Of a stretch of DNA of 64,000 nucleotides, positions 5,455 to 61,324 are shown one piece after another. The first letter of the stretch is position 1, and every line of letters starts with the position of its first letter. This DNA comes from Brachycybe producta (Eukaryota > Arthropoda > Diplopoda > Playtdesmida > Andrognathidae), in the NCBI GenBank assembly GCA_036925085.1, contig JAUPFP010000012.1, positions 3,392,460-3,456,459 on the forward strand. Direction: 5' to 3'. Under the pieces are notes generated by a model. The model searched no databases. It saw nothing but the letters and a program-made list of their open reading frames with translations, and was not told the DNA's origin. A program made the position numbers and the translations under genes.

Positions 5455-5985
5455 ATTAGAATACATGTGACGTATTTTCATTTTAAACCCATATTATTAC
5501 AAATGAATGACGCATGCGCATCACATGTAACTATGTCATGTACATGAGTACATACATGTGTGATTATCTATATACACATGCGCACACGTGTGTACATGTG
5601 CGTACACATGCGTACATGTGCGTACACATGCGCACACGTGTGTACATGTGCGTACACATGCGCACACGTGTGTACATGTGCGTACACATGCGCACAAGTG
5701 TGTACATGTGCGTACACATGCGCACAAGTGTGTACATGTGCGTACACATGCGCACACGTGTGTACATGTGCGTACACATGCGCACACGTGTGTACATGTG
5801 CGTACACATGCGCACACGTGTGTACATGTGCGTACACATGCGCACACGTGTGTACATGTGCGTACACATGCGCACAAGTGTGTACATGTGCGTACACATG
5901 CGCACAATGAAAAAAAGTTGGTTATTGATATATGAAAGCATATATTAAAGCAATGGAGGTCTATAGGGTTCCTTGAATCCCTTGT
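5455..5985 (+). mobile_element. Repeat family D, copy 1, carrying a minisatellite
   Basis: The left flank (ATATTATTACAAATG, GACGCATGCGCATCACATG) and right flank (GGTTATTGATATATGAAAGC, GCAATGGAGGTCTATAGG) recur in inverted orientation around the minisatellites at 12855-13125 and 13517-14240. This makes it a dispersed unit that carries its own tandem array. No terminal repeat or coding frame is evident, so the mobilising mechanism is unknown. Confidence 0.6.
5575..5906. repeat. 30-bp alternating purine-pyrimidine minisatellite
   Basis: About eleven units of a 30-bp repeat built from ACACATGCGCACACGTGTGT and a GTACATGTGC half. Units differ at single positions, for example CACGTG versus CAAGTG. 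The tract is almost wholly alternating purine/pyrimidine and internally palindromic, so Z-DNA or cruciform formation is plausible. Reading frames through it on both strands are repeat artefacts. Confidence 0.9.
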
Positions 5986-12673: not shown

Positions 12674-12852
12674 TGTAACACTCAGTAACTACTAACTTGT
12701 GATCCCGCCAAAACCATGTAGCCTGGGGGGTAAACAACTCGTGCTTGTCCCTCCCTCCTTTAATCAATATTCAAGTGGCGGATGGATACTCTTAGGACCA
12801 TAATCACTTGGGCCTGGTTACACCTCGTAGGTGTACACAGGTCCAAGGTATA
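12674..12852 (+). mobile_element. LTR fragment (U3 part), coding-sense orientation
   Basis: Begins TGTAACACTCAGTAAC and runs through GATCCCGCCAAAACCATG to GGTCCAAGGTATAA, matching the coding-sense start of the LTRs at 22356/31255, including the region just before the TATA box. It breaks at 12852 next to repeat D. Diverged relic. Confidence 0.75.
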
Positions 12853-12854
12853 AC

Positions 12855-13516: not shown

Positions 13517-14240
13517 AGGAATTCAAGGAAGCCTATAGACCTCCATTGCTTTAATATACAGTATGCTTTCATATATCAAATAACCAACTTTTTTTATTGT
13601 TACATGTGTGCGCATGAGTATGCACATGAACACACGTGCGCGCATGAGTATGCACATGAACACACGTGCGCGCATGTGTACGCACGTTTACACATGTGCG
13701 CGCATGTGTACGCACGTTTACACATTTGTGCGCACGTGTACGCACGTGTACACACTTGTGCGCACGTGTACGCACGTGTGCGCACGTGTACGCACGTGTA
13801 CACACGTGTGCGCACGTGTACGCACGTGTGCGCACGTGTACGCACGTGTGCGCACGTGTATGCACGTGTACACACGTGTGCGCATGTGTACGCACGTGTA
13901 CACACGTGTGTGCACGTGTACGCACGTGTAAACACGTGTGTGCACGTGTACGCACGTGTAAACACGTGTGCGCACGTGTACACATGTGTGTGCACGTGTG
14001 CGCACGTGTGTGCACGTGTGTGCACGTGTACGCACGTGTGCGCACGTGTGTGCACGTGTGTGCACGTGTACGCACGTGTATGCACGTGTGTGCACGTGTA
14101 CGCACGTGTGTGCACGTGTGTAAGCACGTGTGTGCACATGTGTAAGCACGTGTGTGCACATGTGTAAGCACGTGTGTGCACGTGTGCGCATGTGTAAGCA
14201 TGTGTACGCACATGTGTGCATGTGTATATAGATAAACACA
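13517..14240 (-). mobile_element. Repeat family D, copy 3 (long array), truncated
   Basis: Left flank AATTCAAGGAAGCCTATAGA, CCTCCATTGCTTTAATATAC and CATATATCAAATAACCAAC, then the array. The far flank seen in copies 1 and 2 is missing; it is replaced at about 14240 by an LTR fragment. Confidence 0.65.
13604..14235. repeat. 630-bp alternating purine-pyrimidine array
   Basis: Nearly continuous alternation built from CACGTGTGCGCACGTGTACG-type units with a local period of about 12, 18 or 30 bp. The left third is rich in CACATG and CGCATG variants; the right end shifts to GTAAGCACGTGTGTGCACAT units. It has strong potential for Z-DNA, and CACGTG is densely repeated. Long Cys/Thr/His/Val reading frames on both strands are pure repeat translations. 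Confidence 0.9.
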
Positions 14241-14244
14241 CAAG

Positions 14245-14705
14245 CAGCTACATCTGCTCCCTAGCTGCTACAGCTAGCTCCTGCCTTATATAGTCTCCGG
14301 CCTCTGAAGAGAAGTTGATTACATATACATAAAGACCACGCTGTTTCTTGTTATAACGCTTTTATTCATCACTCGTATAGAAACACAGAATACAAGGATG
14401 ACTTACAAATACTAACGGTGTGTCCTCATGCCCATATTGTGGTACGGATAAGATCAACGTAATACAAAGGCAAGGACAAGAACTAACTACAAAGAGGAGC
14501 ACGGCCCTTTTATACCTTGGACCTGTGTACACCTGCGAGGTGTAATCACTACTAATCAGGTCCAAGTGACCATGGTCCTAAGTGTATTAATCCGCCACTT
14601 GAGTATGAGTCAGATAAATGAGTCAGAGGGGAGGGAGGGACGGTTGAGAGTTGTTTACCCTCCGGGCTATGGTTTTGGCGGGATCACGAATTACAGGGTG
14701 TTACA
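14245..14705 (-). mobile_element. LTR fragment, antisense, 5' part missing
   Basis: Homologous to the last two thirds of the LTR as written at 22356-23042. Shared blocks are CTCCGGCCTCTGAAGAGAAG, CCTTTTATACCTTGGACCTG, GTCCAAGTGACCATGGTCCT and the end GGGTGTTACA. It has a small internal insertion (AATCACTACTAATC) absent from the young LTRs. It lies head to head with the fragment at 14755-15105. Confidence 0.8.
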
Positions 14706-21610: not shown

Positions 21611-22295
21611 TAGTGTTTCCATTACCGGGTCACCTTATAGCATTACCGGTTTTTGGTACGTTACCGAAACCGGTATTACCTGTAAATTTAGGTAATAAAG
21701 CTAAAAATTTATATTCCATTTAAACTAAACAATTTTATGATTTTTAAATTCATATTTTATTACAAAATTAAATAACAAAAAGGGGGGGGGGAACATAAGA
21801 AAATCTCTTCAGTTCTCTCAGTGAATTTGCACACACGCGCACACACACACAGAGGCACACGCACAGACAGGCAATTAGAAATCAGGACAAACAGAAGTTG
21901 GCTCCGCCCTTTTTATGACGAACGCAACTTCTAATGGGTTGGTTATGTAGTATGACGTCACATGCTCCGCCCTTTTCAACGTCGAATCACACAACAAACC
22001 AATTACAAGTTGCCGGTCGTCATAAAAAGGACGGAGCCAACTTCTGTTTGTCCCGATTTCTAATTGCCTGTCACACACAGTACAAGCTACAATATATTGT
22101 ATCTTGTATGTGGACAGTGAAATTTTAATTCCAAACTCAGTGGTTCTTATATATTGGTTTTATCCCAAATTAATATAAAACTTATTACCGAAAAACCGGT
22201 ATTTGAAAGGTCATTTTACCGGTAATACCGATGTAACAAAATAGACAGGTAATACCAGTTTACCAGTAACGATAAAACCGGTAATGAAAATCCTA
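21611..22295. mobile_element. hAT-like element with TTACCGG-rich ends
   Basis: The left end is TAGTGTTTCCATTACCGG and the right end, in complement, TAGGATTTTCATTACCGG. Inner copies of TTACCGGT and ACCGGTAA are scattered on both sides. Flanks GAGAGTAG and GAGCAGTA could be a decayed 8-bp duplication. It hosts the ACAGGC MITE at 21867-22071. No transposase frame. Confidence 0.6.
21858..22080. mobile_element. ACAGGC palindromic MITE with 9-bp duplication
   Basis: The element at 21867-22071 has ends ACAGGCAATTAGAAATC and its complement, with inner inverted blocks AAACAGAAGTTGGCTCCG and GTCCTTTTTATGACG-like arms. The 9-bp flanks are CACGCACAG and CACACACAG (8 of 9 identical), though they lie in a CA-rich tract. 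A near-identical structure is at 47546-47751. A 9-bp duplication with long inverted arms points to the Mutator-like group. Confidence 0.7.
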
Positions 22296-22355
22296 GAGCA
22301 GTAAGTCAATTGAGACTAAACTGTCATCATGATGAATAAAAAAAACATACAATAG

Positions 22356-23042
22356 TGTGAGCTTTTGACATCAACCAATATTTTATTACCAACCTTTAGA
22401 TGACATTTTCTACTTTTCGTTTCTTCTCTGAGCAGTATGACACCTGCACAGAGAAGATCCGAGCTGTAGAGAGAGCTGGATGGAGATAGATTGTAGTCAC
22501 TCTTCTGCATGGGGGTGTAATCGATGCAGGAGAGTGGCGGCCATCTCTCTCTCTTCCGGTTGATGCTGATATACATCTTCTCCATCGGTATTCCGACCAG
22601 AGAAGATGTTGTAGCTGCTGAGAATCGTATAGCTCCTGCCCTATGAAACCTCCGGCCTCTGAAGAGAAGTTATTTACATAAACATAGAGACAACGCTACT
22701 TCTTGTTACAACACTTTTATTCATTCCTTGTAAGAAGTACAGATACAAGGGTGAATAGTAATATACTAACTGGAAATCCTCAGGCCCATTGATTTGGAAT
22801 GTATCGCAAAAACAGGCAAAGGAAAGAACTGAGGAACAAAGAGGAACATGGTCCTTTTATACCTTGGACCTGTGTACACCTGCGAGGTGTAACCAGGTCC
22901 AAGTGACCATGGTCCTTTATGTATCAATCCGCCACTTGGGCATGAGTCAGAAAGGTGAGTCAGAGAGGAGGGAGGGACGGTTGAGAGTTGTTTACCCCCC
23001 AGGCTATGGTTTTGGCGGGATCACGATTTACAGGGTGTTACA
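22356..23042 (-). repeat. 3' LTR (687 bp)
   Basis: Same length as the copy at 31255-31941. By eye the only difference is G at 22558 versus C at 31457. On the coding strand it starts TGTAACACCC and ends AAAGCTCACA, a TG...CA terminus. It holds its own TATAAAAG (22854-22861) and AATAAA (22716-22721). Confidence 0.95.
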
Positions 23043-23060
23043 TACCCTCCAACTTTGCTT
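23043..23060 (-). other. Candidate polypurine tract
   Basis: On the coding strand the last bases before the 3' LTR read AAAGTTGGAGGGTA, with GGAGGG nearest the LTR. This is a short, imperfect purine run in the position where plus-strand DNA synthesis is primed in LTR elements. Confidence 0.5.
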
Positions 23061-23445
23061 GGAGTACGTCCTCGTACTCCAGCCAAGGGTGGAAGGTTTT
23101 CAAGTTACGCAGCGGGGAGACATGGGTGGCTGAGGACTTACCGTGTACAGAGGTGGTTATGGAAAGGCACTGGCACCGAAGTGTCAGCGCCCTTAAAAAT
23201 TGGAAAAGGCTGAAAACATAAAACAAGGATAATTAATGCTCGCTGAGTGGCGAGCCGCTATTGAAATCTAAAAAGAAAAGAACAGTTGCAACGTATTTTA
23301 TTTTTTTATAAATTTTTCGATAATGCCACCCGGATGGGTGGCAACCACATGAGTACATGTGGCGCGCAGCTATCCCTGCTGCGGAGGGTGGGGAGGATCC
23401 TGGGTCCATGAACCGTACGGGGGGGTAATCCCGCCGGACCTGGCC

Positions 23446-25623
23446 TCATCGGTAGCTGGATGCGGCAGACAGCCATTGTCCCTGGTCGTCAGGTAGATCC
23501 CGGTGGAAGATATTGAAGATGTCCCGGTCCCCGATAATCTTACGGGAGGACCGCTTGTTGTACAGTGTAGCCCAAGCGGCGTCCCATAAGACGGCGATTC
23601 GATAACGAGGATCCGGTTCCGGAATGTAGTGACGACTGGTACGGAACGTCTGTCCAGCTGGCAGTCTAAAGACGGAGTTGACGAAAGCTCCCAAAAGGGC
23701 TTCCGTGGCTTCATCGATGGCATCTCCGGCGAAACTGGTGGTTTCAACAATCCGTCTTCTTGGGAAGACGATGGTGATGAGGACACTTGTTAGGCGGGAG
23801 AGTCCCACGACATATCGCTCCCGGGGAGGGAGGTCCAGACGGGGAAACCCTTCCTCCAAAGAGAAGTGTCCTACGTAAAGGGTGTTGGCAGAGCGCACTT
23901 CGCGCTGCCAAGTGACCCACCGATTGTTGAGCAACCTCTCGCCGGAGGTGGCTGCACGGAACGGATGATCCAGCGGTAACCGCCCCAGAGTAGCCCCGGC
24001 ATGGGGTACAGTGGGCGGTGCGGCTGGTCGGGCTGGTGTTGGAGCCGCAGGTTCCAAAGAAACTGATGCGCCCGTGATAGGCCTGGCATGGCGCAAGGCG
24101 GACCGGGCCATATCGCGGGCCCGCTGACGTAGTCGCTTCGATGCTGACTTCCTGCTCAGCGCCTCCAGTGGCTTGGCACTTCCTGGTGCACGGCCCAGTG
24201 CTTCCATGGGGTCACCTCCCTGTCGCATGACGTCTTGCAGAAGGTTTGTGATGGCCTTCTGTTTTTTCAAGAACGCGGCACGCTCTGCGGAAGGTGGCGG
24301 CATCAAAGGTGTAGGCGTAGGTTGTCCAGAAGGGCGGCCCGGAGGTGGCGGAGGAGGAGAGCGATGCGGGACCCGATTAGGTGGGCCCCGAGTTTCATAG
24401 CGATGGTCGCGGTCCAGTCGGACTCGGTGATCCTGTAGATCTTGCCTGACCCTTGGGTCGAAGTTATTACGCGGCGGGAGGCCGCGTCCAGAGGAACCAC
24501 ATTGTTCCTGCTGACTTCTTCCGTCGGATCGGCGTCGGGGCGAAAGATGGGAACCACGTGGCGAAGAGCGACGTGGCTGTGGCCGTTGAAGAGAGTCTCG
24601 AGAAGAGTGGTGGCCCCTGTAGGACTGTTGAGGCTCCTTGGGGCGAGCCCCAGTGGGAACCTGAACACGAACAGGTTGGGGGACCACCACTATGGAAGGT
24701 AACTTTGGAGTCGGAGTTGGTGTGGCGGCCTCGCTGCGTGGAGGCGTGGCACATCGGGAGGTTGGTGGTGATAATAATGGTGTATGAGGAGGAGGCGGCG
24801 GAGTGATTGACGGCACCGGTGAGCAGTGTTGGAAAGGCTCTGGTGGCGTTATGGGTGGAGAAGGAGATGTGGAGAGGCCAGTTGTCAGGGTTGCTGGCGA
24901 GTCGGAGGATGGAGATGATGACGTAGCTGACGACGTAACTCGGGCGGTTTCTTGGAGTCGGGCCTCGATTCGCAGGAGCTCCTCCTTCGGGAGTTGCGCC
25001 GTACACGGTAAGCCCAGCTCGACAAGGCGGGCGCAAACCGCACGGAGGTACGCCAGATTGTCCTCCCCTTCCTTCTTATCTCTGGCTGCCCGACGAAGAG
25101 CAGCCTCCCTTTGCAGCTCCAAGTGGAGGTCTTCGAGGGGGGAGGGCACAGATCCACCTCCCCCACGCTTCCCTCTTGCTTCAGCTCCACCCGGAATGGG
25201 TTGACCAGGCGCGATGCTATCGCGGAACGCCTGGTTAACCCCCCATGCCATGAGGTTGATATCGATGCGGTCTTCCCGCTCCTCCCAGTAGTGTTTTGAT
25301 GTCGTGACGTCGAAGGGGACGATGCTGCTTGGAGCAGCAGGCTTCCCTTCGCGCCCGACATTGGCAGGTCGCTTGAAGCTTGCTTTTAGGTGCTTCTCCC
25401 CACGCCGGTGAAAATTCTCCGGTTCGGAGGAGGTGCGGCGCCTATCTATTATGTTTGGCGACTCTCTTCTTGTTGTGGGCGCACTGGCGGCGCCCGCCTT
25501 TTGTAGCTGGCAGGTAGATTGAGAGAGGGGTTCAGCGGCCCCCGCCGTTCCACTCTCCGTCTCATCTTCACTAGAAGAGGCAGACATCATTCTGCCTCCT
25601 CTCCATGAGCCTCTACCTGGCAT
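23446..25623 (-). CDS. ORF2: 725-aa protein of unknown family in LTR element
   Basis: One uninterrupted frame from ATG (25621-25623) to its stop, 1.5 kb downstream of gag. I do not recognise the product. Visible layout: residues 1-100 are Ser/Arg/Gly-rich and low in complexity. 104-135 is a short aromatic segment (HYWEEREDRIDINLMAWGVN). 162-228 is charged, probably helical, with heptad-like leucines (LEDLHLELQREAALRRAARD). 230-440 is Pro/Ser/Thr/Arg-rich, presumably disordered, with SPRR-type clusters. 445-515 is basic and helical. 550-725 is a compact mixed domain containing NRWVTWQREVRS, YVVGLSRLTSVLITIVFPRR and IAVLWDAAWATLYNKRSSRK. There is no signal peptide, convincing membrane span, zinc motif or polymerase/integrase motif. 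Intact length beside near-identical LTRs suggests selection. A packaging, RNA-binding or Gag-partner role is speculation. Confidence 0.8.
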   Translation of the reverse strand: MPGRGSWRGGRMMSASSSEDETESGTAGAAEPLSQSTCQLQKAGAASAPTTRRESPNIIDRRRTSSEPENFHRRGEKHLKASFKRPANVGREGKPAAPSSIVPFDVTTSKHYWEEREDRIDINLMAWGVNQAFRDSIAPGQPIPGGAEARGKRGGGGSVPSPLEDLHLELQREAALRRAARDKKEGEDNLAYLRAVCARLVELGLPCTAQLPKEELLRIEARLQETARVTSSATSSSPSSDSPATLTTGLSTSPSPPITPPEPFQHCSPVPSITPPPPPHTPLLSPPTSRCATPPRSEAATPTPTPKLPSIVVVPQPVRVQVPTGARPKEPQQSYRGHHSSRDSLQRPQPRRSSPRGSHLSPRRRSDGRSQQEQCGSSGRGLPPRNNFDPRVRQDLQDHRVRLDRDHRYETRGPPNRVPHRSPPPPPPGRPSGQPTPTPLMPPPSAERAAFLKKQKAITNLLQDVMRQGGDPMEALGRAPGSAKPLEALSRKSASKRLRQRARDMARSALRHARPITGASVSLEPAAPTPARPAAPPTVPHAGATLGRLPLDHPFRAATSGERLLNNRWVTWQREVRSANTLYVGHFSLEEGFPRLDLPPRERYVVGLSRLTSVLITIVFPRRRIVETTSFAGDAIDEATEALLGAFVNSVFRLPAGQTFRTSRHYIPEPDPRYRIAVLWDAAWATLYNKRSSRKIIGDRDIFNIFHRDLPDDQGQWLSAASSYR

Positions 25624-27128
25624 ATTTTCTTAAGAGTTTAAAAGTTCTTACTTTTTCAAAAGTCCCGCTGCTGGAGGTTACTTCCAAATAATAACAGAAA
25701 TCGGTCCCCGATCACTCTTATTATTTCAAGAGGTCCAAAGAGTTCTGAAGGTCTGATGCACTGCACGTGAGTTCAAAGGCTTGAAGGTGGCACTCAAGCT
25801 TTGGCTTAACAACAAAAACTGAAGAAGTTCGAAATTAAGATTTGGAACTTGGCACAGAAGTAGATTGAAGATTTGATGATATAAAGAGATGAACAAAAAC
25901 GAGTGCTTCTTTGAAGAGAGCAAATCAAGTGGTAATTGACCAAGTTTGGTCACTTTTCTTGTTTAATTTTAAAAGTTAGAAGGGCCGGCCCCTTTTAGAA
26001 TAAGACACCTTACTCTAATTGGTTTCTTCACGACTTTATTTATTGGGGGTGGGGGTTGTCCCACCGACATTAGATGTGAGAGGTGTTGATCTAATTCTTA
26101 TCAGAGTCGGTCCTGTTTATTATTTTTAGATAAACAAAAGGACTAAGGAATCTCGAGGGAGAAGGGCCGTTATTTTATTTCACACCGAGGTGTGAAGTTG
26201 CCCATTAACTTTCTCCCCTTCTTTTCCTTAATGCCTTTTTTCGGAAAGAATAGGTCAGCAAGGTTACTAATGTACCTTGCTGTTTGTTATTATTTTTAGG
26301 GGGGAGTGGGACAGGAGTTGGTGTCCCACAATTCGATCTTAATTGAGAGGGTGACAGGTTCTTCAATTTTATTTTTTAATTGAAGGTGTCCGCTCTCACA
26401 AAATCTTCAAAACTGATTTTCTTCCTTTTTTTATTTGTTTATGGCCAGCAGTTTTTGTTGTTTGTTTTTTTTTCTTTGAAGTCCCAGTGCATTGGTCTGG
26501 CCCCCAGAGCAATTGTCTCTTTGAAGTTTTCTATCCTCTACTGTCAACATCATGGTCAATGACGTCCGTCCATAATAAAGGGGAGCACGGTGTTTTCCTT
26601 TTGCTGACCCTTTTATGGCTCTTGATTTTTCTTCTGAACGTCCTTGACTGGCCTTCGGCGTTTTTCCCAGGTGTACCACGTGGTTGACAGTTGTTTGTGA
26701 AGGCCACGTGGTTCCGGTGTAGTTTATTGCATGTTTGAAATGGTTGCCAATATGTAAATATCGGCGGCCATTTTGAAAAGTTTAAAAGTGTTTCAAAAAT
26801 TAAAGTTGTATGAATTTTGTAGAGTTTTGGGAGTTATTTGAGAGTGTTTAGAGGGGTTGTTGATGCTGTGGGGTTGTTTATTCGTTGGGGGGTTCCTTTT
26901 ATCCCCTCCCCCACCTCTTGACAACTGTCCTCAGTTGTTTCTCAACACAACAATTCTCAAATTCCTCCCGCTCTTCTATTGTTGATATTTGATGGTTGCT
27001 GGTGTTTATTTCCATAGTCATGAAATAAACACTGGTGAATTATTGTTTTATTTTCCTCGCGTTTGGTTTCTTGACAGCGTGGGTGGCCACTTGATCGGCT
27101 CGCCCGAGGTCCATTTGTGTGCAGGAGC
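25624..27128 (-). other. 1.5-kb spacer between gag and ORF2
   Basis: Non-coding on the element strand: no long frame and no reverse transcriptase, RNase H, integrase or protease motifs, although pol would be expected here. It is more AT-rich than the coding parts, with short poly-pyrimidine and GGGGGTGGGGG-type tracts (about 26046-26058, 26300-26312). It may hold a splice acceptor or internal ribosome entry for ORF2, but none is evident by eye. Confidence 0.6.
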
Positions 27129-28799
27129 TCAGTCGAGCACTTTGATTGGTATGTCCTCAGAGTGGTCAGAGCTGTCATTGTCGGATGTGTCAGGAGGAGG
27201 TGCTCCGGCGGCTGAGTCTGCTGCTGGAAGAGGGATCCGGCGGATTTGTCCCGCCACTCTTATCAGGGCAAACTCAATGCCGTCTTCGGTGATGATATCC
27301 GTTTCAGGCACCTCTCCTTTGATGTCATAGTCGGTAACCGGCTCCCCAAACTGCTTGATTGCAACCTTCTTCTTTGGTTGCCGACACTCACGGACGAAAT
27401 GCCCCAATTTGCCACAATTATAACACGTCGACTTACTCTTGTCGAACGTGCGAGTGGTCTCTGGTTGGGGGTCCGCTGCAGAGTGTCGGTTTGAATTGGT
27501 GGCAGCAGTCTGACTAGGCTTTTTATCATGCCTAGACCGGTGTGGTTTGTCTTTAGGGCTGGCGGCTGCCGCCGGCTCCTGGTCGGTCTTCGATGCTCCT
27601 TTACCCGACTGTGAATCAGCTGCGGGTTTTGGTTCCGTCGGCCATTTATCCAAGGACAGCAAGACCACCTCCATATTGAGGACGGCGTTTGCGAAGTCCT
27701 TGAACGACGTCGTAGATGCGTGGTGCGCGGCGTTCTGTATGGTGGGGTGTAGAGCGTGGCGCAACTGGCTTATACGCAGCTGATCGTCAAGTTGCGGGTA
27801 AACTCGGTCGCCGAGTATCATAAACTCCCAGATGAAAGCTTGTGTACTCTCGCCTTCCTTCTGGAGCATCTCTGTATACTTTTTCTCCAAGATGGCCAGT
27901 TCGTTCGGCTTCCCGAACGTATCTACCATCTGTACTCTCAGTGCTGGCCAAGGAATGTCCTGAAGCTCATACCTCAGTTTACTCAGCCACGTACGGGCGG
28001 CCCCAGTGAAACACCCCGTGATGTATTCCTCCTTGTGGTGGTCTTTCCAACCGTACAGGTGTGCCACTTCCTCGAATTCTTCCAGGAAGGGACGGAAACC
28101 TGTCAATCCGTTGAATTTTTGGATTGAGTCGGCAGGGTGGCGACCGCTGTATTTCTTATTGAACTCTTCCACGGAGGGTTCTCTGGGGGTTGGTCGATAG
28201 ATGCCATCCTGGACGTTTGGCATTCCAGCCGGCATCAGACCTACCCCTTGCGGTGGAAAACGTGGTGCGTAAACTGAAGTGCCTTGTGTCGCTCCTTGGC
28301 TAGGCTGTTGTTCCGGGGGTGTCGAGCGGCGACCGCTACGTGCAACCCGGGCAAGCGAGTGAGGAGAATCAGCACGTGTCGTAATCGGTATTTCCGCACG
28401 CTCATCTCTGTGACGCGGATCATCTGACTGCCCTTGTTGTTGCCAGTCAGGGTTACGCGGTAGACGACGTGTGTGCGGTGTGTAATGTCTTTCGTAACGA
28501 TCGTGACGCTCTCTGTAGCCAACATAGGGAACTGAAGAGGCGTCCGAGTCATCGTCGCGAAGTCGGTGTGTGCGTGTTGTCCGCCGTGGTGTAGTCGGTC
28601 GATTCGGTGTGAATCGGTCGTCTATGAGCTGAGACATACGAGTCGAGAGTGCAGCCACTTGTTGTGACAGGTGGTCAAACTCGGCCCCAGTCGGCCGCGG
28701 CGGTGGTGTCACATCAGTAGTCACGGGTACTTCCAACAGATCTTCGTGTGAACCCTGGTGATCAGACAGGGACCCCGTATTGTCGTGTGAGGCAGCCAT
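27129..28799 (-). CDS. gag: Gag polyprotein with CCHC zinc knuckle (556 aa)
   Basis: The structural protein that would build virus-like particles and package the element RNA in the cytoplasm. Residues 1-215 are Arg/Pro/Ser-rich, with an early helical stretch (FDHLSQQVAALSTRMSQLID). About 225-385 is a retrotransposon-type capsid region: QKFNGLTGFRPFLEEFEEVA, then GCFTGAARTWLSKL, then FGKPNELAILEKKY and LRISQLRHALHP. 390-450 is a Lys/Ser/Pro linker. The nucleocapsid knuckle is C459-C462-H467-C472 (CYNCGKLGHFVREC). An 84-residue acidic tail follows. The start ATG at 28797-28799 opens the frame. The frame stops with no visible frameshift signal and no in-frame protease, unlike typical Ty3/Gypsy elements in which gag runs into pol. 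It is intact, so it probably still works. Confidence 0.92.
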   Translation of the reverse strand: MAASHDNTGSLSDHQGSHEDLLEVPVTTDVTPPPRPTGAEFDHLSQQVAALSTRMSQLIDDRFTPNRPTTPRRTTRTHRLRDDDSDASSVPYVGYRERHDRYERHYTPHTRRLPRNPDWQQQGQSDDPRHRDERAEIPITTRADSPHSLARVARSGRRSTPPEQQPSQGATQGTSVYAPRFPPQGVGLMPAGMPNVQDGIYRPTPREPSVEEFNKKYSGRHPADSIQKFNGLTGFRPFLEEFEEVAHLYGWKDHHKEEYITGCFTGAARTWLSKLRYELQDIPWPALRVQMVDTFGKPNELAILEKKYTEMLQKEGESTQAFIWEFMILGDRVYPQLDDQLRISQLRHALHPTIQNAAHHASTTSFKDFANAVLNMEVVLLSLDKWPTEPKPAADSQSGKGASKTDQEPAAAASPKDKPHRSRHDKKPSQTAATNSNRHSAADPQPETTRTFDKSKSTCYNCGKLGHFVRECRQPKKKVAIKQFGEPVTDYDIKGEVPETDIITEDGIEFALIRVAGQIRRIPLPAADSAAGAPPPDTSDNDSSDHSEDIPIKVLD

Positions 28800-30781
28800 G
28801 ATTAATGATGTGGCTTGTGTAATGTGAATGTGTGGTGACGAACGAGTCCGGCGAAGTCCAAGTCGTTGTGTGCAGCTCCGAGGGTTCTCGAGTACACTCT
28901 GAGCTATACTTTCGGGTTCCAGTATGATGGGACTCGTTCAGTTCGTGAAGTTGTAGGTCGGTGATGTCACTGTGCGTTGGTAATTTAGTGCTTGTCGGCA
29001 ACCGACACTATCGTACTCTTATACACTGAGTAACGATAGATTACCTAAGCTTGTGACGTGTATAACGAAGTGGCCGTTCACTCCGTTAGTGTGGTGATGG
29101 TTGTATCGTGTTGATCGTGTTCTCAGTTGGGCGTGTGACGAGTTTTGGTTCCCAACTGGTGTAGCGTCGTGAGTTCTTTATTGAGTGTCAGATTTTAGAA
29201 GGATCTCTCTCGACACGTGGTATTTGGCGACCACGTGGAGGTTATGAGAATTCCAAAAATTTCAATAAAGAAACTGAAGATGTACAATACAATCCCGAGC
29301 GTGGTGCACCACCCAATCGAAATTGCACTGCGGAAAGTGAATTAGAAATGAAAGTGTATTGCAATTGCCTGAAGAAGAGGAAAGCAATACGAAGAGTAAA
29401 GCTAGAGCGCGGTGCCCGCACTTTTAGTTTTACTTGGAAACAAGAATGAAGAGTGTGTGTGTAAAGAACACACAAAGAACAAAAAGTTCAAGATGGCTGA
29501 ACTTTTTAAATGCACAAACAAAGGAGAAGTTCAAGATGGCTGAACTCTCCAAAGAAGCAAGAAAAGAAAGCTGTTTTACTTTGAAAGTTTAAAACTTAGG
29601 TGCGGTGCCCGCACATCAAAAGTTTTAATTTAGTTTTATTAAAACAGTAAAACAGTGTAGAAATTGAAGTGTGTTCAACAAGCTAAAGGCTTGGTGAACC
29701 AGAAGAAATGTTCAGATTGTAGAAATTTTGAGTCCTCACTGCTGGATGGCTCTGGATGAAAAAGACAGAGTCGGTGCCCAGTGAGGGACTATGTTGAGTA
29801 GAATGAAGAAGTCCGTAGGTGGCGCTGTGGTGGCCACTTCCGGTCAGTTTATTGCAATGTCCAAAAATTGATGATTGAAAAGTTCCTCCGGGGCACGTTT
29901 TTATGGGGGCCAGGAGAAAGACACCAATAGAGAGAAAATTCAAAGAAAAAGAGAAGTTTTCTCTAACAAGAGGAACTCCGCCAGGGGGCGCATGAGTGCA
30001 ACCCTCTGGAAGAGAAGAAAAGAGAAGAGGACACAAAAAGATGAGAGAAGGTACAACAATGAGTCACATGGAGCGAAAAACCGCTCCGTTGGCGCTTTTT
30101 GAAGAGTGTCCGGTCGATCCAAGATGGCGGCCGGGCTTCAGTGCTGTCCAATGGAGAAAGTTCATGTGATGATGCATTGAGGTGATGATGATGAAGAAAT
30201 TGAAGAACATGACTTGGGACATAGAGGGTCCCAAGGGAAACACAAATGTAAAAACAAAGAACAAAGAAAAAGGGGGGACAAGAAAGTCCCACGTGGCTAG
30301 GAAAAGTGTGTTTTAAGCTTGTAAGCCCCCTAACAATGAAATAGAGTTAGGAAGAATCTTGCTTGAAAATTAAAGATGAAGAGTGAAGATAATAGGACAT
30401 TTTAAAAGACACACACGTCCTTTAAAAGCCTATTAATAGGTGGATAGATTAGTAGATGAGATTTGTTTGCTCATCTCATAATGAGACTGCAAACTCCTCT
30501 CGGAGAGTAAGAAGAATTTGTTTAAAGTGTTGCCCACGTGGTGTGGGTTTCACTTTGAAAATTAAAGAAGAACAAAGGTGAAAGTGGGTGATGATAATGG
30601 AAACATAAAATACAAAAACACGGACGGAAACACATGTGTCAAAGAACTACTACCAAGGTGTTGCCCACGTGCTTGATGGATGTCGATGCAGCAGTTCCTT
30701 TAACATGTGTCTCTAAGGACAGGACACAGAATCGCGCGGTCGACACGTGGTGTGTGTAGCCACAAGTCTCTTTCGCGATTC

Positions 30782-31145
30782 CACAAAAACGGTACCATGC
30801 GGTTGGCTTTGACGTGATCGAGGGCCTCCATACATGGTCCCAACATAAAAAGGCGCCACGCGGTTGGCTTTGACGCTATCGAGGGCCTCCATACGTGGTT
30901 CCAACACAAAGGACGCCGCGCGGTTGGCTTTGACGTGATCGAGGGCCTCCATACGCGGTTTTACAAAGGCGCCACGTGGTCGACTTTGACGCTATCGAGG
31001 GTCTCCACACGTGGTTCCAACACAAAGGACGCCGCGCGGTTGACTTTGACGTGATCGAGGGTCTCCATACGCGGTTTTACAGACAGGCGCCACGCGGTTG
31101 ACTTTGACGCTATCGAGGGTCTCCATACGTGGCTCCAACATAGAA
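30782..31145 (-). repeat. About 60-bp tandem array with dimeric higher order
   Basis: Six units of 56-61 bp, each carrying GGTTGGCTTTGACG or GGTTGACTTTGACG followed by ATCGAGGGCCTCCATAC or ATCGAGGGTCTCCATAC. Units alternate between TGACGTGATCG and TGACGCTATCG and between ends with CCAACA and TTTTACA, giving a dimer period of about 118 bp. It begins roughly 100 nt after the primer site on the element RNA. Frames such as 30713-30952 are repeat translations. Confidence 0.85.
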
Positions 31146-31235
31146 AGGACGGACGAAGCCTCGTGAGGCACAATCACGAGACTTAGGACAAAGGACGGCT
31201 TCTGTTTACAGGTCGGAGAAGGCAGATGGAGCTAT

Positions 31236-31252
31236 ACCCCGCACCTCCACCA
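31236..31252 (-). promoter_or_regulatory. Primer binding site, tRNA-Ala type
   Basis: Two bases after the 5' LTR the coding strand reads TGGTGGAGGTGCGGGGT. Its complement, ACCCCGCACCTCCACCA, has the form of a tRNA-Ala 3' end: CCA, discriminator A, and acceptor strand CACCTCC with U at position 70, which would form the G3:U70 pair that identifies tRNA-Ala. Seventeen contiguous bases fit. The assignment rests on knowledge of tRNA-Ala, not on a search. Confidence 0.75.
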
Positions 31253-31614
31253 AATGTGAGCTTTTGACATCAACCAATATTTTATTACCAACCTTTAGAT
31301 GACATTTTCTACTTTTCGTTTCTTCTCTGAGCAGTATGACACCTGCACAGAGAAGATCCGAGCTGTAGAGAGAGCTGGATGGAGATAGATTGTAGTCACT
31401 CTTCTGCATGGGGGTGTAATCGATGCAGGAGAGTGGCGGCCATCTCTCTCTCTTCCCGTTGATGCTGATATACATCTTCTCCATCGGTATTCCGACCAGA
31501 GAAGATGTTGTAGCTGCTGAGAATCGTATAGCTCCTGCCCTATGAAACCTCCGGCCTCTGAAGAGAAGTTATTTACATAAACATAGAGACAACGCTACTT
31601 CTTGTTACAACACT

Positions 31615-31620
31615 TTTATT
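31615..31620 (-). terminator. LTR polyadenylation signal
   Basis: AATAAA in the context GAATGAATAAAAGTG, about 135 nt downstream of the TATA box, in the expected U3-R-U5 order. The working copy for the element RNA would be its twin in the 3' LTR (22716-22721). Confidence 0.65.
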
Positions 31621-31752
31621 CATTCCTTGTAAGAAGTACAGATACAAGGGTGAATAGTAATATACTAACTGGAAATCCTCAGGCCCATTGATTTGGAATG
31701 TATCGCAAAAACAGGCAAAGGAAAGAACTGAGGAACAAAGAGGAACATGGTC

Positions 31753-31760
31753 CTTTTATA
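31753..31760 (-). promoter_or_regulatory. TATA box of the 5' LTR
   Basis: TATAAAAG on the coding strand within GGTATAAAAGGACC, about 180 nt into the LTR. U3 would end and R begin roughly 25-30 nt downstream. Confidence 0.7.
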
Positions 31761-32071
31761 CCTTGGACCTGTGTACACCTGCGAGGTGTAACCAGGTCCA
31801 AGTGACCATGGTCCTTTATGTATCAATCCGCCACTTGGGCATGAGTCAGAAAGGTGAGTCAGAGAGGAGGGAGGGACGGTTGAGAGTTGTTTACCCCCCA
31901 GGCTATGGTTTTGGCGGGATCACGATTTACAGGGTGTTACAATAGCTTATACAATATAGGGGAAAAAATGACCTAGAACAACCTAAATAAAATTTGCATA
32001 AGTTACACTAACACCATTTACACTGACAATTGAATTGTGGATACTCATGACTGAATTGCGGATATCTCTAA

Positions 32072-32655
32072 TACCTAATACACACACCTGATAATTTAAA
32101 TGCATTTAAATAATAAATGTGTTCTAATACCTTGTACACACATGAGTTAAATGAATTCAAATTAAATGTGTTTCAGGTGAATTATACAGAATCCAGTTAA
32201 GGACATGAACCCAAATAAAAATTGTTATTATTATTATTTTAAATTGAAATACTAAATCAATATTTTGTCAATAGCTTCTATAGGGTTGTATTATATTTAA
32301 GTATTAACTCAATATTTTCAGATTATTAACTGAATAAATAGAATTCGACATATTGTTTGTTTGCCCTTCACAGGGCTCTGTAGAACACGTTTATTTAGGT
32401 ATAACAGAACCCTGTGAAGGGCAAACAAACAACAATATGTCGAATTCAATTTATTCTGTTATTAATCTGAAATTATTGAGTTAATACTTAAATATAATAT
32501 ATAAACTATTGACAAAATATTGATTTAGTATTTCAATTAAAATATTAAAAATAAAGTCAATTTTTATTTGGTTCATATCCTTAACTGGTTTCCGTAAAAT
32601 TCACCTAAACACATTTAATTTGAATTCATTTAACTCATGTATACAAGGTATAACT
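32072..32655. mobile_element. MITE-C copies 2-3 as a head-to-head inverted pair
   Basis: A left-end fragment (TACCTAATACACACACC, about 32073-32130) is followed directly by an inverted copy beginning TACCTTGTACACACATG. After a short centre (GTTTATTTAGGTATAACAG, about 32390) a direct copy ends at ATGTATACAAGGTA. The arms match for about 250 bp, so the segment can fold into one long hairpin. Internal markers CAATATGTCGAATTC and GGGCAAACAAACAA occur in both orientations. Confidence 0.75.
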
Positions 32656-46084: not shown

Positions 46085-46733
46085 GGTAGGGCCTTGTGTA
46101 AACCAGCCTAGTGTGAATGCGCCTTTACAGTTCAATCCTTCCCAAAATGCAATGCAATACTAGGTATTTTTTGTTCTTGGTCAACTCGTTGCACGTGCAG
46201 AGATACACGCATATGAAAAAGTACATTATAGTGTACTTTTTCTATATTAGAACAAATCACACCTCAGAGAGAAGAATGGCACAACTCAAAAAACCACTGT
46301 TTTGGGGAAAATGATTTTAAAGTTGCATTTTTTCTGTCTCAATCTATTGTTAGGGAGCCAAATAAAAAGATATTGTAAATAGTTAAAATGGTTTTTGCAC
46401 TTGAAAAGCTCAGAAAAGTAAGCCATGAATCTTTTCTTAACTTTAAACTCATTTTCAGGTATGTACCGAGCTCTAAAAAATTCTAGGTCGGCCATATCCA
46501 GCATCGGCACTTTATCTCCTTCATCTCCAAAGCGAGCCAAAAAAAACAGCAACATTTTTTTTGATATAGCACCATATATGTAAGAATGTATGAAATTGAA
46601 GTATATGTAGTTTCTTAAATTTTGGTAAATATAAATTTACATTTGACAGTTATGAAAGAGGCTCTCGAGGTCCATCCAATTTTGGGAAGTTCCCAAGGGC
46701 TTCACGATTTCTATATGCATAGGGGGCTTCTTA
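46085..46733. other. No gene seen
   Basis: AT-rich with an inverted AAAGTACA...TGTACTTT word near 46220-46240. The minus-strand frame 46286-46555 is not recognised. Confidence 0.4.
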
Positions 46734-47325
46734 GCTTTGAGAGGCTCCCAATGGCCTTCCAGTTTTGAGAGGTTTGGGAATGTCTCGCATTTCAAGAACA
46801 TCCCAAAGGCCTTCCAGTTTTGAGAGGTTTTGGGATGTCTCGCATTTCAGGAACAACCCGATGGCCTTCCAGTTTTGAGAGGTTTTGGGGTGTCTCGCAT
46901 TTCAGGAACATCCCGATGGCTTTCTAGTTTTGATAGGTTTTGGGATGTCTCGCATTTCAGGAACATCCCGATGGCCTTCCAGTTTTGAGAGGTTTTGGGA
47001 TGTCTCGCATTTCAGGAACATCCCGATGGCCTTCTAGTTTTGAGAGGTCTTGGGATGTCTCGCATTTCAGGAACAACCCGATGGCCTTCTAGTTTTGAGA
47101 GGTCTTGGGATGTCTCGCATTTCAGGAACAACCCGATGGCCTTCCAATTTTTATAGGTTTGGGGATGTCTCGCATTTCAGGAACATCCCGATGGCCTTCC
47201 AGTTTTGATTGGTTTTGGGATGTCTCGCATTTCAGAAACATCCCGATGGCCTTCCAGTTTTGAGAGGTTTTGGGATGTCTCACATTTCAGGAACATCCTG
47301 ATGCCTTCACAATTTTGTTAGGCTC
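46734..47325. repeat. 55-bp minisatellite
   Basis: About eleven units of 55 bp containing ATGGCCTTCCAGTTTTGAGA, GGTTTTGGGATGTCTCGC and ATTTCAGGAACATCCCG. Outer units are more diverged than inner ones, as expected for unequal exchange. No open frame runs through it. Confidence 0.92.
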
Positions 47326-47545
47326 CTGTTGGCTTCTTTATCCTGTAACATTTTTTAAATTTTCAAGTAATTCAGTATATAGTTAAAATTGTATATTTTA
47401 ATGTGCTGTAAACAATTACCTTAAATTACAAAAATGTAGGTATTAATAATTTTTGAAATAAATCTACGTGCACCACTTGACCGTGTATAAAAGTAAATAT
47501 TTGACGCACCGGTGCCTGGAAGGACCGGCGCAGGTGTCCTTTGCC

Positions 47546-60656: not shown

Positions 60657-61324
60657 ATATTGTGAGCTTTTGACATCGACCTTATAATTTTACCAACTTC
60701 ATGATGATGTTTTCTGCAACTCGTTTCTTCTCCTAGTCGTGCAGTGACCGCATGAAGAAGATTCGAGTTACAGAAGTAGTCGGATGGCGATCGATTGCAA
60801 TCATCCTTCTGTGCAGGGGTGTAATCTTTGCAGAAGGATGGTGGCCATCTATCCTGGTCGACGTTGATATGCATCTTCCTTTGTCTGTTGCCAATTGAAG
60901 ATGCTGTAGCTGCTCCAGGATCTGTATGTCTCCTTGCCTTATGGTGTCTCCGGCCTGTTTAGAAAAGTATTAGTTTCCAAACATAAAGACAATGTAGTTT
61001 TTCATTGTAACGCTTTTATTCATCCTTGCTCAGAAACATCAAGAGTACAAGAATGTGGTACGGATAAGAATCTACGTAATACAAAGTTGAGCAAAGAGAA
61101 GGATGCCGAACAAAGAGGAACACGGTCCTTTTATACCTTGGACCTGTGTACACCTACAAGGTGTAACCAGGTCCAAGTGACCATGTTCCTAAGAGTATCA
61201 ATCCACCACTTTGATATGACTCAGAAGTATGAGTCAGAGAGGAGGGAGGGACAAGCAGGAGTTGTTTCCCCCCCCCCCAGGCTATGGTTTTGGTGGGATC
61301 AAGAGTTACTGGGTGTTACAATAT
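60657..61324 (-). mobile_element. Solo LTR of the pol-less element family, ATAT duplication
   Basis: The LTR at 60661-61320 (660 bp) has the same orientation and termini as the young LTRs: TGTGAGCTTTTGACATC at one end and GGGTGTTACA at the other. ATAT lies at 60657-60660 and 61321-61324. TATAAAAG and AATAAAAG are conserved on the minus strand. It is clearly diverged from the 687-bp LTRs, so it marks an older wave. Confidence 0.88.

What the first reader, a model, noticed from the sequence alone, without database searches (positions are those of the whole stretch)
22352..31945. Recently mobile LTR retrotransposon with Gag but no pol, plus a second large ORF
Seen: 687-bp LTRs with one visible difference, ATAG duplication, primer site, intact 556-aa Gag, intact 725-aa ORF2, and no polymerase or integrase motif anywhere in 8.2 kb of interior. 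Known: pol-less, gag-bearing LTR elements have been described in plants (TR-GAG type), and they rely on a partner's enzymes. Inference: this animal element keeps Gag under selection and adds a novel protein, a layout I do not know from described families.
Basis: partly seen in the sequence, partly recalled or inferred. Interest (0 to 1): 0.88.

Follow-up and report, generated by a model that had tools for sequence, protein, structure and literature searches.

The report
Retrotransposon split into two complementary halves
This jumping element carries the shell protein but none of the copying enzymes, and the same genome holds a matching element with nearly identical ends that carries the enzymes but no shell protein, so the two most likely move only together, like a two-part virus.

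Summary
In detail: a young 9,586-bp LTR element (22356-31941, minus strand) with Gag, a 725-aa ORF2, and no RT, RNase H or integrase. It is one of hundreds ("type A"; 323 capsid sites). Pol is absent from all 12 A copies read, but this copy has also lost about 690 bp encoding the protease that 8 of the 12 carry. The partner was found. "Type B" (136 RT sites) has nearly identical LTRs, the same primer site and 2-kb leader, and an intact protease-RT-RNaseH-integrase protein in 6 of 6 copies, but no capsid or zinc knuckle; it also has a shorter ORF2 relative. Of the 100 listed 5' ends (of 476), 72 are A, 28 are B and none was found to carry both halves. The leader has no fixed A/B difference over about 2,050 columns, with 43 shared polymorphisms, while shared protein domains are 37-50% identical: the ends recombine. 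Both halves are under purifying selection. Best reading: a reciprocally complementary, two-part LTR retrotransposon. One-way gag-only and gag-less families are known in plants; I saw no report of such a pair in a limited search. A third, undetected helper is not excluded.

The parts
22352..22355 (.). target-site duplication copy 1 (ATAG on +, CTAT on element strand)
22356..23042 (-). 3' LTR, 687 bp, TG...CA
   Evidence: 40 near-identical LTRs scored genome-wide, a lower bound
23043..23050 (-). purine-rich run before 3' LTR (likely polypurine tract)
   Evidence: read from sequence; present in the A and B copies printed
23043..23193 (-). 3' terminal block shared with type B partner (about 150 nt, 0-2 fixed differences per 50 columns, 12 A and 4 B copies)
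23238..23255 (-). small hairpin; type B has a matching hairpin whose outermost pair is changed on both sides
   Evidence: read from sequences; only two sequence classes, so weak
23446..25623 (-). ORF2, 725 aa: P/S/R-rich N-terminal part (about 540 aa) plus conserved C-terminal domain (about 23449-24003) shared with type B ORFb
25624..27128 (-). spacer between gag and ORF2; no pol remnant detected (spacer of L042 tested)
27088..27098 (-). site where about 690 bp (protease end of Gag-Pro) is missing in this copy
27129..28799 (-). gag ORF, 556 aa (truncated form of the 793-aa Gag-Pro)
27378..27428 (-). CCHC zinc knuckle (nucleocapsid)
27747..28022 (-). Retrotrans_gag capsid domain
29213..31254 (-). 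5' leader shared with type B; no fixed A/B difference until element position 2730
30790..31140 (-). tandem 56-61-nt repeats in the leader, also in type B
31237..31252 (-). likely primer-binding site (16 nt; looks like tRNA-Ala, recalled, not tested)
31255..31941 (-). 5' LTR, 687 bp
31942..31945 (.). target-site duplication copy 2

Best explanation
The window element is one half of a two-part (bipartite) Ty3/gypsy-type LTR retrotransposon. Type A RNA makes Gag (capsid + zinc knuckle, in most copies fused to a protease) and ORF2. Type B RNA makes a protease-RT-RNaseH-integrase polyprotein with no capsid or nucleocapsid, and a short ORF2 relative. Both RNAs carry nearly the same LTRs, primer site, 2-kb leader and 3' end, so both would be packaged into type A particles, copied by type B enzymes and inserted. 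Shown: the anatomy, the mutually exclusive gene content of the copies examined, the shared recombining ends, purifying selection on both sides, and recent insertion of type A. Inferred: co-packaging, and that neither half moves without the other.
For: Domain content by tblastn: CA and NC in 12 of 12 A copies and 0 of 6 B; RT, RH, IN in 0 of 12 A and 6 of 6 B. Genome-wide at up to 3 mismatches: 323 CA sites, 136 RT sites, 476 LTR-PBS ends. Of the 100 listed 5' ends (all exact matches, C1-C8): 60 lead to a listed CA site, 27 to a listed RT site, 0 to both, 13 to neither; 11 of the 13 have the ORF2 site, and 251-nt reads class the last two as one A and one B. PBS-to-RT distance 4,024-4,981 bp in 27 of 27, which leaves no room for an added capsid. 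CA-to-ORF2 distance at most 3.8 kb in 76 of 76 A copies with both sites, which leaves no room for RT-IN. 84 of 100 listed RT sites have the B-specific no-capsid junction upstream in the listing. Leader: 0 fixed differences and 43 shared polymorphic columns between 12 A and 6 B before element position 2730; 5 of 12 A copies carry the B allele in one block; a B 3' LTR (L023) is identical over 687 nt to an A 3' LTR (L024) (types assigned from neighbouring sites). Shared coding parts have diverged: protease 47% aa identity, ORF2 domain 37%, pS about 0.7. Purifying selection: A capsid pN/pS 0.11, A protease 0.21, ORF2 C-domain 0.16, B RT-IN 0.08. Recent: 8 of 10 A LTR pairs identical, 2 with one difference; perfect 4-bp TSD in 8 of 10 (read). 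B pol intact in 6 of 6.
Against: No expression, particle or mobility data. The 100 5' ends are the exact-match ones listed first; 376 of 476 were not classed, and CA and RT were matched against capped lists (exact CA sites; RT sites with 0-1 mismatch). 16 of 100 listed RT sites had no junction in the capped listing: 4 on contigs past the listing's cut, one with the normal B distance, 5 without a listed 5' end, 6 not checked; two of the 84 matched ones have odd spacing (2,592 and 1,662 bp). Older related LTRs (78-89%) exist and one spaced pair was not read, so an older complete relative is possible. Shared ends could also arise by gene conversion between genomic copies. Some leader blocks do show A/B differentiation (cols 450-750, 2/300 shuffles; cols 1800-2050, 0/300). 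About a third of A copies (27 of 76) are of the short class that lacks protease in the copies read. B insertion ages were not measured.
Confidence: 0.68

Rival explanations
1. One-way parasitism: A is a pol-less and B a gag-less derivative, and both are mobilised by a third, complete gag-pol element with different or older ends (or one absent from this assembly).
For: Older related LTRs exist; gag-less and pol-less plant families are explained this way (PMC11963269 and PMC2410132, sections read).
Against: 0 of 100 classed ends belong to a complete element. The B polyprotein and the A capsid are intact in the copies read and under strong purifying selection, which a pure parasite does not need. 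A search for distant complete relatives was not possible.
Confidence: 0.17
2. B takes capsids from an unrelated Gag element, and A takes enzymes from B (a chain, not a pair).
For: B lacks CA and NC and its Gag source is not proven. Other Gag families of this genome were not tested.
Against: A is a Gag source with the same leader and a related protease; A and B exchange sequence.
Confidence: 0.09
3. A simple recent deletion copy of an ordinary element.
For: This copy lacks about 690 bp including the protease; 27 of 76 A copies with both probe sites fall in the same short class.
Against: None of 12 A copies carries RT, RH or IN; the A/B coding split is old (pS about 0.7).
Confidence: 0.03
4. Shared ends reflect gene conversion between inserted copies, or a recent one-off swap of interiors, not co-packaging (compatible with the main reading of gene content, so not exclusive of it).
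For: Any homologous exchange would stop where homology stops.
Against: 43 shared polymorphisms, a B-like allele in 5 of 12 A copies and an identical A/B LTR need repeated exchange, which speaks against a one-off swap; gene conversion remains open.
Confidence: 0.2

Closest known systems
TR-GAG elements (plants)
   Same: LTRs plus intact gag, no pol, presumed dependence on a partner (recalled; the original paper is not held; other papers naming it seen in listings only)
   Different: Here a partner is identified and itself lacks gag; the element also carries ORF2 and in most copies read a protease
Athila pol-less families, Arabidopsis (PMC2410132; outline and sections 5, 7, 9 read)
   Same: pol-less gag or gag+env families under purifying selection; recombination between families
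   Different: In Athila all potentially autonomous, pol-bearing elements also have gag, so helpers are complete; LTRs of different families are in general highly divergent
BARE1/BARE2, barley (PMC3735527; abstract and passages read)
   Same: gag-deficient element packaged in particles made by another; conserved packaging signals
   Different: [quoted passage not shown] here the Gag donor has no pol and the pol donor has no capsid
gag-less Retand clusters (PMC11963269; passages and Discussion read)
   Same: recently amplified elements without GAG but with other domains; extra ORFs beyond pol
   Different: No reciprocal gag-only partner with the same ends was mentioned in the parts I read; plant lineage; extra ORFs mainly antisense
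Mini-Ty1 donor-helper system (PMC4974528; passages read)
   Same: terminal sequences suffice for mobilisation when proteins come in trans
   Different: Laboratory construct; here two natural halves each keep the terminal blocks
Segmented RNA viruses (recalled)
   Same: different genes on separate genome pieces with common ends
   Different: DNA-integrated retroelement; no particle shown; an analogy of working, not membership

Membership tests
Ty3/gypsy-type LTR retrotransposon (the pair) | LTRs TG...CA with short TSD | tested here: met
   (perfect TSD in 8 of 10 A pairs)
Ty3/gypsy-type LTR retrotransposon (the pair) | Gag with capsid and CCHC | tested here: met
   type A only:
Ty3/gypsy-type LTR retrotransposon (the pair) | PR-RT-RH-IN order | tested here: met
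   type B only:
Ty3/gypsy-type LTR retrotransposon (the pair) | gag and pol in one element | tested here: not met
   0 of 100 classed 5' ends (of 476)
Ty3/gypsy-type LTR retrotransposon (the pair) | RT tree placement | not tested
   no tree built
TR-GAG | LTRs, gag ORF, no pol | tested here: met
TR-GAG | no other coding capacity (recalled) | tested here: not met
   ORF2 under selection, protease in 8 of 12 copies
BARE2-like gag-deficient parasite (type B) | a complete gag-pol relative serves as host | tested here: inconclusive
   none among 100 classed ends, but 376 ends and older relatives unread
Athila-like pol-less family | pol-bearing helper also has gag | tested here: not met
   CA and NC absent from 6 of 6 B
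Bipartite/segmented genome | complementary genes on separate units with common ends | tested here: met
Bipartite/segmented genome | co-packaging and mutual need | not testable with these tools
   needs particle or expression work

The most novel reading that the evidence does not exclude
An obligately bipartite LTR retrotransposon: capsid and enzyme genes live permanently on two integrated 'segments' that share and exchange their ends, each useless alone, with the Gag:Pol ratio set by the two segments' copy number or transcription instead of by frameshifting.
Probability: 0.6. Interest if true: 0.92.

Novelty: new variant of a known kind. Interest (0 to 1): 0.83.

Why it matters
Non-autonomous LTR elements are usually seen as parasites of a complete master. 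Here no complete master was found among 100 classed elements, and both halves keep selected genes. If true, genome segmentation is a route open to retroelements, cooperation between transposable elements can be kept by selection, and there is a natural system for asking how enzymes without a Gag fusion enter particles. It also warns annotation pipelines that a 'non-autonomous' family can be half of an autonomous pair. In the listings (titles and abstract starts) of ten paper searches I saw no reciprocal gag-only/pol-only pair; that is a limited search of open-access text.

Tried and rejected
Rejected: pol deletion in this copy alone; an ordinary autonomous partner with the same LTR, within the ends classed; ORF2 as a known domain (Pfam at E<=1 and <=10, PDB by sequence and by profile; the best PDB hits, E=0.91 and 0.73, are not credible). 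The spacer as a pol remnant gave only weak short hits (tblastn E>=0.98; tblastx best E=0.009, in short stretches on both strands). A relation between the N-terminal part of B Pol and A Gag is weak: E=1e-4, 22% identity in one blastp without composition correction, nothing at E<0.001 by tblastn. tRNA and Rfam scans of the window found nothing. The first pattern search for primer sites was uninformative.

The script failed and was redone; the leader comparison lost most A copies and was redone; two searches were rejected for argument errors; the paper is not held; one search was this report with fields in the wrong form.
Full report
What is in the window. The element runs on the minus strand from 31941 (5') to 22356 (3'), 9,586 bp. 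The 687-bp LTRs differ at one base and are flanked by a 4-bp duplication. Gag (27129-28799) has a Retrotrans_gag capsid domain and a CCHC knuckle. ORF2 (23446-25623) has no Pfam match and no credible PDB match (its C-terminal domain also as a profile or member by member).

Copies. A search with the LTR scored 40 candidates of 1,979, all near-identical except one extra partial match, so the number is a lower bound. I fetched 12 elements found as LTR pairs; 11 have the window's layout ("type A") and one does not. Among 12 A copies including the window's, 8 encode a 793-aa Gag-protease. The window copy and three others lack about 690 bp there and end at 556-583 aa. On C1-C10, 76 of 90 listed capsid sites have a listed ORF2 site downstream, in two distance classes: 27 short (3.08-3.28 kb) and 49 long (3.58-3.80 kb); the four protease-less copies read are short and the eight others long. 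So the protease deletion is a common subtype and not a private defect. ORF2 is 725 aa in 9 of 12, in-frame shorter in two (703, 713) and broken in one.

The partner. The odd element (L050, C7) shares the LTR and leader but has an interior of its own: a protein with protease, RT, RNase H, integrase zinc-binding and core domains and no capsid or knuckle. A DNA search with 3.6 kb of this pol scored 40 candidates of 1,372; all 40 match over the full 3.6 kb at 99-100%. Five more copies were fetched. All six B copies read have an intact 1,558-1,562-aa polyprotein, and five of six an ORFb of 325-333 aa. tblastn by domain at E<0.001: capsid and NC 12/12 A, 0/6 B; RT, RH and IN 0/12 A, 6/6 B; protease 8/12 A, 6/6 B; ORF2 C-domain 12/12 A, 6/6 B; ORF2 N-part 12/12 A, 0/6 B. 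A and B proteases are 47% identical over 246 aa (E=7e-68) and the ORF2 domains 37% over 221 aa (E=4e-39).

Is there a complete element? Fixed probes at up to 3 mismatches found 323 capsid sites, 136 RT sites, 106 B no-capsid junctions, 282 ORF2 sites and 476 LTR-PBS ends; reversed-pattern controls gave 0 in each. The tool lists only about the first 100, fewest mismatches first. Of 100 listed capsid sites (exact, C1-C11), none lies closer than 10.9 kb to any of 51 listed RT sites on those contigs. Of the 100 listed 5' ends, 60 lead to a listed capsid site, 27 to a listed RT site, none to both, and 13 to neither. Eleven of those 13 have the ORF2 site; the other two were read at two points each and are one A (95% in the capsid region, 83% further on) and one B (96-97% in RT and IN). 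Result: 72 A, 28 B, 0 complete. Spacing supports this: PBS to RT is 4,024-4,981 bp in 27 of 27 B, and capsid to ORF2 at most 3.8 kb in 76 of 76 A with both sites, too short for the missing half. The listed ends are exact matches on C1-C8, so older or diverged complete relatives would not appear. Of 100 listed RT sites, 84 have a listed junction upstream, 82 of them at 1.70-1.80 kb and two at 2,592 and 1,662 bp; 16 do not. Of these 16, four (C91, C92, C96, C109) lie on contigs past the cut of the one-mismatch listing, and one of them is the fetched B copy L055. C3:12093819 has the normal B distance to its 5' end. Five others have no listed 5' end. Six (on C12, C20, C26, C51, C10, C11) were not checked further.

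Shared, recombining ends. In an alignment of 12 A and 6 B leaders there is no fixed A/B difference before element position 2730 (column 2060), while 43 columns before it carry the same polymorphism in both types; 102 fixed differences follow as the coding regions begin. In columns 450-750, five of 12 A copies (L040, L043, L044, L046, L047) carry the allele seen in all six B and seven a divergent one. Label shuffles show no strong A/B separation in columns 0-450 (31/300) and 750-1800 (17/300), but do in 450-750 (2/300) and 1800-2050 (0/300), so exchange is not complete everywhere. With 12 A and 4 B copies, the last 150 nt before the 3' LTR have 0-2 fixed differences per 50 columns, against 10-31 in all but the first, nearly empty, block further in. 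One B 5' LTR (L050) and one B 3' LTR (L023) were compared with the 29 other LTR loci held: the closest and farthest rows printed put L050 at 1-5 differences, and L023 is identical over 687 nt to an A LTR (L024); ten A elements differ among themselves by 0-6. L023 and L024 were typed by their distance to RT or to capsid and ORF2 sites.

Selection and age. pN/pS within types: A Gag 0.17, capsid 0.11, A protease 0.21, ORF2 0.35 (C-domain 0.16, N-part 0.39), B RT-IN 0.08, B protease 0.09, B N-terminal part 0.41, ORFb domain 0.21 (12, 8, 11, 6 and 5 copies respectively for Gag, A protease, ORF2, B pol, ORFb). Between A and B, pS is about 0.7 in both shared domains, so the coding split is old while the ends are kept alike. 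In 10 A elements with both LTRs read, 8 have identical LTRs and 2 one difference; 8 of 10 have perfect 4-bp duplications, the other two one mismatch (read).

How it probably works (inference). Type A supplies particles, type B the enzymes. The common leader and ends would carry the packaging, priming and strand-transfer signals; for Ty1 and Ty3 the terminal regions suffice when proteins come in trans (PMC4974528, passages). Two different RNAs in one particle would explain the recombination, though gene conversion between inserted copies would also do so. Gag excess, usually set by frameshifting (recalled), could here come from more A than B (323 to 136 sites). How a Pol without a capsid fusion enters the particle is open. 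ORF2/ORFb has no assigned function; both halves keep its C-terminal domain under selection, so it is probably needed by both.

Comparison. Athila has pol-less gag families under selection, but its pol elements keep gag (PMC2410132). BARE2 lacks Gag but lives on BARE1 (PMC3735527). Gag-less Retand clusters exist (PMC11963269). The reciprocal arrangement is what differs. The listings of ten paper searches showed no such pair; I read one paper in three sections and three in passages, one of those also in its Discussion.

Noticed in passing
14275-14705, 60661-61320, 12693-12853: Older, diverged copies (72-84% over the main hits) of the same LTR; searching with one shows an old dispersed family (78-89%) with one LTR pair at C2:3155243/3162202 that could hold an ancestral interior.
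   Followed up: partly
32140-32640 and 21866-22072: Palindromic, MITE-like sequences on both sides of the element (arms 93-100% complementary); the right one has relatives near 61.5-62.3 kb.
   Followed up: no
5540-5907 and 13533-14241: Two related arrays of a 10-nt-register tandem repeat, also complementary to each other; the second gives long ORFs of low complexity.
   Followed up: no
46636-47460: Tandem array with a 55-bp unit.
   Followed up: no
30790-31140: Six 56-nt repeats inside the leader, spaced 56-61 nt, that alternate between two subtypes; also seen in type B, so possibly a packaging signal.
   Followed up: partly
23138-23225 (minus strand): Splice-acceptor-like and splice-donor-like motifs close together just before the 3' LTR, present in the A and B copies printed.
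   Followed up: no
L050 8010-9012: The first B copy found has a broken ORFb (230-aa remnant) although its pol is intact.
   Followed up: partly
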